A stretch of DNA of 64,000 nucleotides from assembly GCA_963575645.1 (NCBI GenBank), contig OY754468.1, forward strand, positions 5,704,001-5,768,000. Direction: 5' to 3'. The stretch's first letter is position 1. Each line of letters opens with the position of its first letter. The position numbers and the translations under genes were made by a program. The notes beneath the pieces were generated by a model, which saw nothing but the letters and a program-made list of their open reading frames with translations, was not told the origin of the DNA and did no database searches. This DNA is from Xanthostigma xanthostigma. Its lineage: Eukaryota; Arthropoda; Insecta; Raphidioptera; Raphidiidae. Positions 35,513 to 35,762 of this stretch are shown piece by piece.

Positions 35513-35762
35513 GATGAAGGAAGGTTTTGGTTGAGGATCATAAAATAAGCTTTACCAATGTTACGCTAGTGGCCAATGTTTCGAAAAATTTATTTTCATC
35601 TTCAGGGCCTCAAGCTGGTCAAGTGGTGGTTAGAACAATTTACCACCACTTGACCAGCTTGAGGCCCTGAAGATGAAAATAAATTTTTCGAAACGTTGGC
35701 CACCAGCGTAACATTGGTAAAGCTTATTTTATGATCCTCAACCAAAACCTTCCTTCATCTTA
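35513..35762. repeat. Inverted pair of hammerhead-like tails
   Basis: Arms of about 118 bases (35513-35632, 35641-35762) are nearly exact reverse complements around a loop of about 10 bases. Each arm carries a hammerhead-like core, facing outward on opposite strands. No reverse transcriptase sequence is associated. Confidence 0.85.
35663..35701 (+). ncRNA. Hammerhead ribozyme-like motif (best match)
   Basis: The order GGCC - CTGAAGA - stem-loop (GAAAA/TTTTC) - GAAACGTT - GGCC gives a perfect 4-bp start of stem I, with more pairs beyond a mismatch. Stem II has 5 pairs, and both conserved boxes are present. Stem III would be only the self-complementary ACGT, as in minimal type I hammerheads described in Penelope-like elements, which may act as dimers. 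Cleavage is predicted after GTT. The mirror copy on the minus strand is at 35571-35609, with GAAACATT in place of GAAACGTT. Confidence 0.65.

What the first reader, a model, noticed from the sequence alone, without database searches (positions are those of the whole stretch)
35513..35762. Head-to-head pair of hammerhead-like ribozymes with no visible retroelement
Seen: arms of about 118 bases, each with CTGAAGA, a 5-bp stem II, GAAACGTT (GAAACATT in the left arm) and GGCC on both sides forming stem I. Known: minimal type I hammerheads occur in Penelope-like elements and retrozymes. Inferred: this is a compact ribozyme-bearing unit, inverted on itself, that either is a Penelope terminal pair or moves on its own. 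Stem I and stem II are better kept here than in the neighbouring Penelope tails, which suggests selection or youth.
Basis: partly seen in the sequence, partly recalled or inferred. Interest (0 to 1): 0.8.

Follow-up and report, generated by a model that had tools for sequence, protein, structure and literature searches.

The report
Inverted pair of Penelope leader copies
The two mirror-image ribozyme-like pieces are one insertion in which the leader of a Penelope retrotransposon's messenger RNA was copied twice, head to head; the arrangement is known for this class, but the many copies in this genome give unusually clean evidence on how it forms.

Summary
The palindrome is real. A 13-bp target-site duplication bounds it as one insertion, 35513-35796. 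Genome searches gave 1,901-2,088 first-look candidate copies; I read 75 loci plus the window. The unit is the leader (pseudo-LTR) of an endonuclease-bearing Penelope-like element (PLE): six read copies continue upstream into an ORF fragment whose best Pfam match is GIY-YIG (just under cut-off). It is not a separate ribozyme unit. All 43 head-to-head pairs scored by script (42 loci) have one arm ending at an inner 3' site and one at an outer site about 35 nt further on; no two pairs share a centre. An intron-like stretch just 5' of the ribozyme-like motif is present in 15 and absent from 75 arms crossing that point, including both focal arms; the two forms interleave on a tree. I infer that spliced sense mRNA was copied. 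Best model: both target strands prime reverse transcription and the two cDNAs are joined. This fits published PLE biochemistry and argues against the published antisense self-priming idea. The hammerhead fold is supported by covariation between families, but it lacks a closable stem III, has no Rfam match, and no scored arm starts at its predicted cut site.

The parts
35500..35512 (.). left copy of the 13-bp target-site duplication GATTAAATATAAA
   Evidence: exact direct repeat at both outer edges
35513..35630 (-). left arm: antisense copy of the PLE leader, ending at the inner 3' site (no tail)
35571..35609 (-). hammerhead-like motif of the left arm (GAAACATT, so the two-base stem III would hold a C-A mismatch)
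35629..35796 (+). right arm: sense copy of the PLE leader, ending at the outer 3' site; the arms share GT at 35629-35630
35663..35664 (+). exon junction CTTGAG|GCCC where related copies carry an intron-like stretch of 114-172 nt
35663..35701 (+). hammerhead-like motif: stem I GGCC/GGCC, CTGAAGA, T, stem II GAAAA/TTTTC, GAAACGTT
35762..35796 (+). tail, the stretch between the inner and the outer 3' site
   Evidence: present in the right arm only
35797..35809 (.). right copy of the target-site duplication
42580..46202 (+). insertion A of another PLE family with its 13-bp repeats (42580-42592, 46190-46202): antisense arm with tail on the left, RT-EN ORF (43869-45914) and short end on the right
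   Evidence: long and short ends read by eye
46198..47509 (+). insertion B of that family, beside A, with its 15-bp repeats (46198-46212, 47495-47509): short end on the left, tail on the right
   Evidence: ends read by eye

Best explanation
The feature is one insertion made from the 5' leader of a spliced PLE mRNA. Shown by sequence: one duplication bounds both arms; the arms are head to head; one ends at an inner and one at an outer 3' site; both lack the intron-like stretch that other copies carry; the same leader lies next to a GIY-YIG-like ORF end in other copies. Inferred: the PLE enzyme makes staggered nicks in AT-rich DNA that leave 3' overhangs of about 13 nt; each overhang primes reverse transcription inside the leader, one at the inner and one at the outer start site; both cDNAs run toward the RNA 5' end, stop early or near the transcript start, and are joined, which gives head-to-head arms, one tail and a duplication. 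The ribozyme-like motif is copied along as part of the leader, and its cleavage does not set the ends of the scored copies.
For: Direct repeats of 8 bp or more at the outer edges in 33 of 38 set-1 loci against 3.1% of mismatched flank pairs, and in 12 of 18 set-3 loci (no null run). 43 of 43 scripted pairs have one inner and one outer end, including 11 of 11 in set 3, whose query covers neither end. Two insertions of another PLE family in the window show the same. 75 of 90 arms crossing the junction lack the intron-like stretch; spliced and intron-bearing copies need 10 changes on a tree. Upstream ORF end: 34% identity to the window PLE C-terminus, E 5e-14; Pfam GIY-YIG E 2.5e-4. Arms of one insertion agree at site 293 in 23 of 24 pairs. 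Published: the Anolis PLE protein cuts and extends both strands and starts RT at two internal sites that bound the tail (PMC11167929).
Against: No RNA or biochemical data from this genome: splicing, transcript start and nick geometry are inferred. No excess microhomology at the centres (mean overlap 4.2 against 3.8 in simulated joins), so the joining step is unexplained. Nothing explains why the two ends always differ. Single-arm insertions exist (7 of 38 in set 1, 7 of 18 in set 3). One tree clade of 7 is all spliced and much of the tree is weak, so part of the spliced copies may come from an intron-less source. No RT region was found for this family; the whole-genome protein search did not complete. 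The Pfam GIY-YIG scores lie just under the curated cut-off, and the whole 681-aa ORF of the other family shows no RT or GIY-YIG Pfam hit.
Confidence: 0.72

Rival explanations
1. Self-priming: one cDNA, or an antisense RNA, folds back and copies itself, which gives the palindrome, as proposed for rotifer Penelope elements.
For: The rotifer authors favour it because palindromes lie at inverted junctions and introns are retained there (PMC3846280 passages). Arms of one insertion share variants, as a self-copy would. In some loci the arms start within a few nt of each other (L006 182/184, L029 187/184).
Against: A self-copy of the arm with the tail should carry the tail; 0 of 43 pairs have two tails. 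Many arms differ greatly in length (for example 235/29, 265/9, 22/302). Both arms of the focal copy and most arms of the others lack the intron-like stretch, which does not fit an antisense template.
Confidence: 0.13
2. A palindromic, ribozyme-bearing non-autonomous unit (retrozyme-like) that transposes as a whole.
For: Small size, high copy number (2,088 first-look candidates), most examined copies without ORF, conserved motif.
Against: No two of 43 pairs share a centre; single-arm copies exist; no direct tandem repeat; the transcript would fold into one hairpin (-218 kcal/mol) with one sense motif per strand.
Confidence: 0.03
3. Two independent solo-leader insertions that happen to lie back to back.
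For: Nested PLE insertions do occur: insertion B in this window lies beside insertion A.
Against: One direct repeat bounds each pair in most loci; pairs outnumber single arms (30 against 7 in set 1, 11 against 7 in set 3); the arms share variants.
Confidence: 0.04
4. A foldback or MITE-like DNA transposon.
For: Inverted-repeat shape; many other palindromes in the window.
Against: The outer ends are not the same (inner against outer site), arm lengths vary, an intron-like stretch is removed, and the unit adjoins a GIY-YIG-like ORF.
Confidence: 0.02

Closest known systems
Endonuclease-bearing Penelope elements of the rotifer Adineta vaga (PMC3846280, passages seen)
   Same: Inverted, mostly head-to-head pseudo-LTRs, an optional 31-bp tail on one of the inverted copies, target-site duplications of 8-10 bp, solo pseudo-LTRs
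   Different: Low copy number and introns retained there; here thousands of candidates, repeats mostly of 12-13 bp, and a leader intron that is missing from most examined copies
Poseidon PLE of Anolis carolinensis, PAc (PMC11167929, half of the text read)
   Same: Leader with hammerhead motif, two adjacent RT start sites that bound the tail, AT-rich targets, both strands cut and extended in vitro
   Different: That text as searched does not discuss head-to-head insertions, splicing of the leader or an inner-plus-outer rule
Minimal type I hammerheads of PLEs (PMC6155905, passages; Cervera and De la Pena 2014, not held)
   Same: CTGAAGA and GAAAC core, stems I and II, no helix III
   Different: An extra base before stem II in the nine motifs aligned here; whether the published motifs have it could not be checked
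Metazoan retrozymes (PMC7229834, passages)
   Same: Small, non-coding, type I hammerhead motif, suggested mobilisation by PLEs
   Different: Retrozymes are direct tandem repeats of about 300 bp with canonical hammerheads; here inverted pairs of a PLE leader with a minimal motif

Membership tests
Penelope-like element (endonuclease-bearing) | GIY-YIG endonuclease at the end of the ORF | tested here: met
   ORF fragment upstream of the leader in L042, L043, L045, L049, L053, L057 (motif YVGQT in L042, L045, L049); L045 fragment: Pfam GIY-YIG E 2.5e-4, 21.7 bits against a cut-off of 22.6; predicted structure too poor to use
Penelope-like element (endonuclease-bearing) | PLE-type reverse transcriptase in the same ORF | tested here: inconclusive
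   Not seen for the focal family: its ORF-bearing copies read here are truncated and the genome protein search did not complete (last try). The other family's ORF in the window has weak PDB matches to RTs (best E 9.6e-4) and no Pfam RT hit
Penelope-like element (endonuclease-bearing) | pseudo-LTR leader with a tail on one of two inverted copies | tested here: met
   43 of 43 scripted pairs
Penelope-like element (endonuclease-bearing) | target-site duplication | tested here: met
   33 of 38 loci of set 1; 12 of 18 of set 3
Hammerhead ribozyme, type I | conserved core with stems I and II | tested here: met
   A1, nine motifs: 77.5% of cells paired, 8 of 9 pairs with changes on both sides, covariation 0.568 against at most 0.253 when slid
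Hammerhead ribozyme, type I | stem III closed in cis | tested here: not met
   ACGT without a loop
Hammerhead ribozyme, type I | match to a curated covariance model | tested here: not met
   no hammerhead match at gathering thresholds in the window or at E up to 10 in the stretches tried; no positive control was run
Hammerhead ribozyme, type I | self-cleavage | not testable with these tools
   needs the bench
Metazoan retrozyme | direct tandem repeats with a canonical type I hammerhead | tested here: not met
   inverted pairs or single arms in the loci read
Foldback or MITE DNA transposon | identical terminal inverted repeats | tested here: not met
   one end is always the inner and one the outer site in 43 of 43 pairs

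The most novel reading that the evidence does not exclude
PLE insertion is an intrinsically two-sided reaction: an enzyme dimer on spliced leader RNA primes from both 3' overhangs, always one at the inner and one at the outer RT start site, perhaps on one RNA molecule. In the two tail-only arms seen (L038, L065) the outer cDNA stops about where the inner one would start. Solo terminal repeats are then by-products of starting reverse transcription in the leader of the element's own mRNA.
Probability: 0.4. Interest if true: 0.75.

Novelty: new member of a known kind. Interest (0 to 1): 0.5.

Why it matters
How PLEs come to sit head to head with a single tail is open: one published proposal is self-priming, possibly on an antisense template (PMC3846280), and the 2024 biochemistry leaves the later steps open (PMC11167929). 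A young, abundant family whose copies keep their duplications, both 3' start sites and a removable intron turns each insertion into a record of the reaction. The rule of one inner and one outer end, and splicing in both arms, point to sense mRNA and two-strand priming, and can be checked in any PLE-rich genome.

Tried and rejected
Autonomous palindromic mobile unit: rejected, no shared centres. Retrozyme: rejected, no direct tandem. Microhomology at the centre: a first look by exact extension seemed to favour it, but against simulated joins there is no clear excess (mean 4.2 against 3.8; overlaps of 5 or more in 33% of 21 pairs against 23% of simulated ones), so it is not claimed. Ribozyme cleavage as the source of arm 5' ends: none of the 86 arm starts lies within 2 nt of the predicted site (276/277); with that many arms only about two would be expected by chance, so this is weak. 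Selection on the motif within the family: not shown. miRNA matches of the palindrome lie below those families' gathering scores and are taken as hairpin artefacts. The predicted endonuclease structure (mean pLDDT 51) was not searched. PMC4209133 and PMC8557442 are not held.

Full report
Observation. The palindrome is as described: arms 35505-35630 and 35642-35767, 97% complementary, 11 nt apart, each with CTGAAGA, a five-pair stem II, GAAACGTT (GAAACATT on the left) and GGCC on both sides. The window holds 8 matches to CTGAAGA-N5-25-CGAAAC against 0.03 in shuffles. It makes 35513-35796 one insertion, in which the right arm carries 35 nt (35762-35796) that the left arm lacks. Of 20 palindromes of the window tested in the same script, the only other repeat of 11 bp or more was a 14-bp A/T run inside the arms of 39620-39814.

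The family. A search with the right arm gave 2,088 first-look candidates, 40 scored, 62 matches in 38 loci. I read all 38: 37 fetched and the window (set 1). By hand 30 are head-to-head pairs, 7 are single arms and one, L018, is complex. A query with the 5' part of the unit gave 393 candidates; of the 40 scored, 6 were already held and 21 more lie in the 20 loci fetched (set 2); 13 were not read. A query inside the arm that covers neither 3' end gave 1,901 candidates; 18 new loci were fetched (set 3).

Single insertions. In set 1, 33 of 38 loci have an exact direct repeat of 8 bp or more at the outer edges (23 of 38 have 12 or 13 bp), against 3.1% of mismatched flank pairs. In set 3 it is 12 of 18 (no null run). 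So a pair is most simply one insertion.

The two ends. A script paired adjacent minus and plus arms and found 43 head-to-head pairs in 42 loci (L003 holds a second, nested one). All 43 have one arm ending at the inner site (...CTTCATCTT) and one at the outer site (...TATACTGAA, some a little further); none has two inner or two outer ends, and no two share a centre. Set 1 is biased toward right arms with the outer end, because its query reaches 6 nt into the tail; set 3 is not, and is 11 of 11. Single arms end at the outer site in 4 and the inner site in 3 of 7 in set 1, and at the inner site in 7 of 7 in set 3, of which L071 also has a 23-nt inverted stub. Insertions A and B of another PLE family in this window show the same by eye, with repeats of 13 and 15 bp. 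In L065 and L038 the outer-end arm is the tail alone and stops at or within a few nt of the inner site.

What the unit is. Upstream of the unit, L042, L043, L045, L049, L053 and L057 share an ORF fragment. Three of them (L042, L045, L049) reach the motif YVGQT; in L049, L053 and L057 the end reads NYIYGSIINKI and stop, just before the leader; L042, L045 and L057 have stops or shifts inside. The L045 fragment's best Pfam match is GIY-YIG (E 2.5e-4, just under the curated cut-off), and it is 34% identical to the C-terminus of the window's other PLE (E 5e-14). That other ORF (43869-45914) has weak RT matches in the PDB (E 9.6e-4) and GIY-YIG when its C-terminus is scanned alone (E 6.2e-4), but no such Pfam hit as a whole. 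So the palindrome belongs to an endonuclease-bearing PLE family, distinct from the one 8 kb away. I did not find its RT region.

Spliced. Intron-bearing copies have 114-172 nt between CTTGAG and GCCCTGAAG. In the 12 listed on the reading strand it begins GTATGTAA, and in 11 of these it ends TTCATAG. Of 90 arms that cross this point 75 lack it and 15 have it. Set 1 favours right arms without it, by its query; in the 20 loci of set 2, picked by upstream sequence, 15 have it. On an exon tree of 42 rows the two forms are interleaved: 10 changes (bootstrap 9-11; shuffled mean 12.5, 40 of 500 shuffles as low), at least 3 forced by starred branches; one clade of 7 is all spliced, and much of the tree is weakly supported. 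I read this as an intron removed from sense mRNA more than once. No RNA data were available. Spliced arms start at reference 1-64 (28 of 75; 15 of these at 18-34, around TCAGT, recalled as an initiator motif) or at 131-225 (47), none at 65-130; 13 of 15 intron-bearing arms reach the first reference base, and most of these match each other further upstream.

Same source. At site 293 the two arms agree in 23 of 24 pairs (14 T, 9 C; Fisher 7.6e-6; two of the 24 are from L003). In set 1, arms of one insertion differ at 3.3% against 4.1% between insertions, with 0 of 2,000 permutations as low. One RNA molecule, one source locus, or later gene conversion would each do this.

Mechanism. A stagger of about 13 bp with 3' overhangs lets both target strands prime. 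Each cDNA is antisense, so the arms face head to head and the overhang becomes the duplication. The Anolis PLE enzyme cuts and extends both strands and starts RT at two internal sites that bound the tail (PMC11167929: parts 1 and 2 of 4 of the text and passages read). The rotifer study describes the same build and favours self-priming on an antisense template without excluding an unspliced sense one (PMC3846280: passages read). Exclusive one-tail pairs, widely different arm lengths and splicing fit two-strand priming better. Not shown: how the cDNAs are joined (no clear microhomology excess), why the two ends always differ, and how single arms are completed.

The ribozyme. Across nine motifs of this genome (A1), CTGAAGA and CGAAACG are invariant and every row has one base (A or T) before stem II. 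8 of 9 pairs of stems I and II show changes on both sides (13 of 500 shuffles reach 8), 77.5% of cells are paired, and the covariation score is 0.568 against at most 0.253 for slid controls, with 0 of 500 shuffles as high; the number of further pair types is less striking (34 of 500 shuffles). This supports the fold; rows are few and related, three or four come from one family, and L013's may be a stray. Against strong activity: no Rfam hammerhead match, ACGT without a loop (I recall that such motifs act as dimers), the extra base, and a palindromic transcript that folds into one hairpin of -218 kcal/mol with only one sense motif per strand. The single motif folds as stems I and II (-13.2 kcal/mol; 7 of 200 shuffles as good). 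No arm start lies at the predicted cut site. PLE hammerheads as minimal motifs lacking helix III are described in PMC6155905 (passages); in Anolis, cleavage needs the protein and is not needed for insertion in vitro.

Novelty. Paper searches with Penelope, inverted, tail, head-to-head, intron and hammerhead terms listed no paper whose title or abstract start joins these points; most subscription papers and two key ones are not held. The feature is a new member of a known kind. Its value lies in what its many copies say about the reaction.

Noticed in passing
52208-52455: An older head-to-head palindrome (84%) with the same kind of core and compensating stem I (GGTC/GACC); no target-site duplication of 8 bp or more found.
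   Followed up: partly
1-300 and 37774-37971: Further hammerhead-like PLE leader pieces next to inverted stretches; the left arm of the first has CTGATGA.
   Followed up: partly
1651-2263, 6619-7410, 14124-14729, 29704-30497, 36240-36782: Several other long palindromes without hammerhead-like cores; 1651-2263 and 36240-36782 are relatives (about 80%). Probably foldback or MITE-like elements.
   Followed up: no
15748-18573: LINE-like element in two overlapping frames: endonuclease/phosphatase (Pfam E 1.5e-4, below cut-off) and reverse transcriptase (Pfam RVT_1 E 3.9e-29).
   Followed up: no
39006-39078 and 48020-48334: tRNA-like sequences above Rfam's gathering score; the second lies in a short direct repeat array with a spacing of about 106 nt. 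Perhaps tRNA-derived SINEs.
   Followed up: no
L001:7043-7549: Another PLE family: ORF end (54% identical over 41 aa to the window PLE) about 380 nt upstream of a hammerhead-like core with a different, fully paired stem II (GATAC/GTATC).
   Followed up: partly
54717-57670: ORF pieces that look like a sodium-dependent neurotransmitter transporter (recognised from memory, not searched).
   Followed up: no
L022 and L006 centres: Some centres hold extra short copies of leader sequence, as if the copying enzyme had jumped.
   Followed up: no
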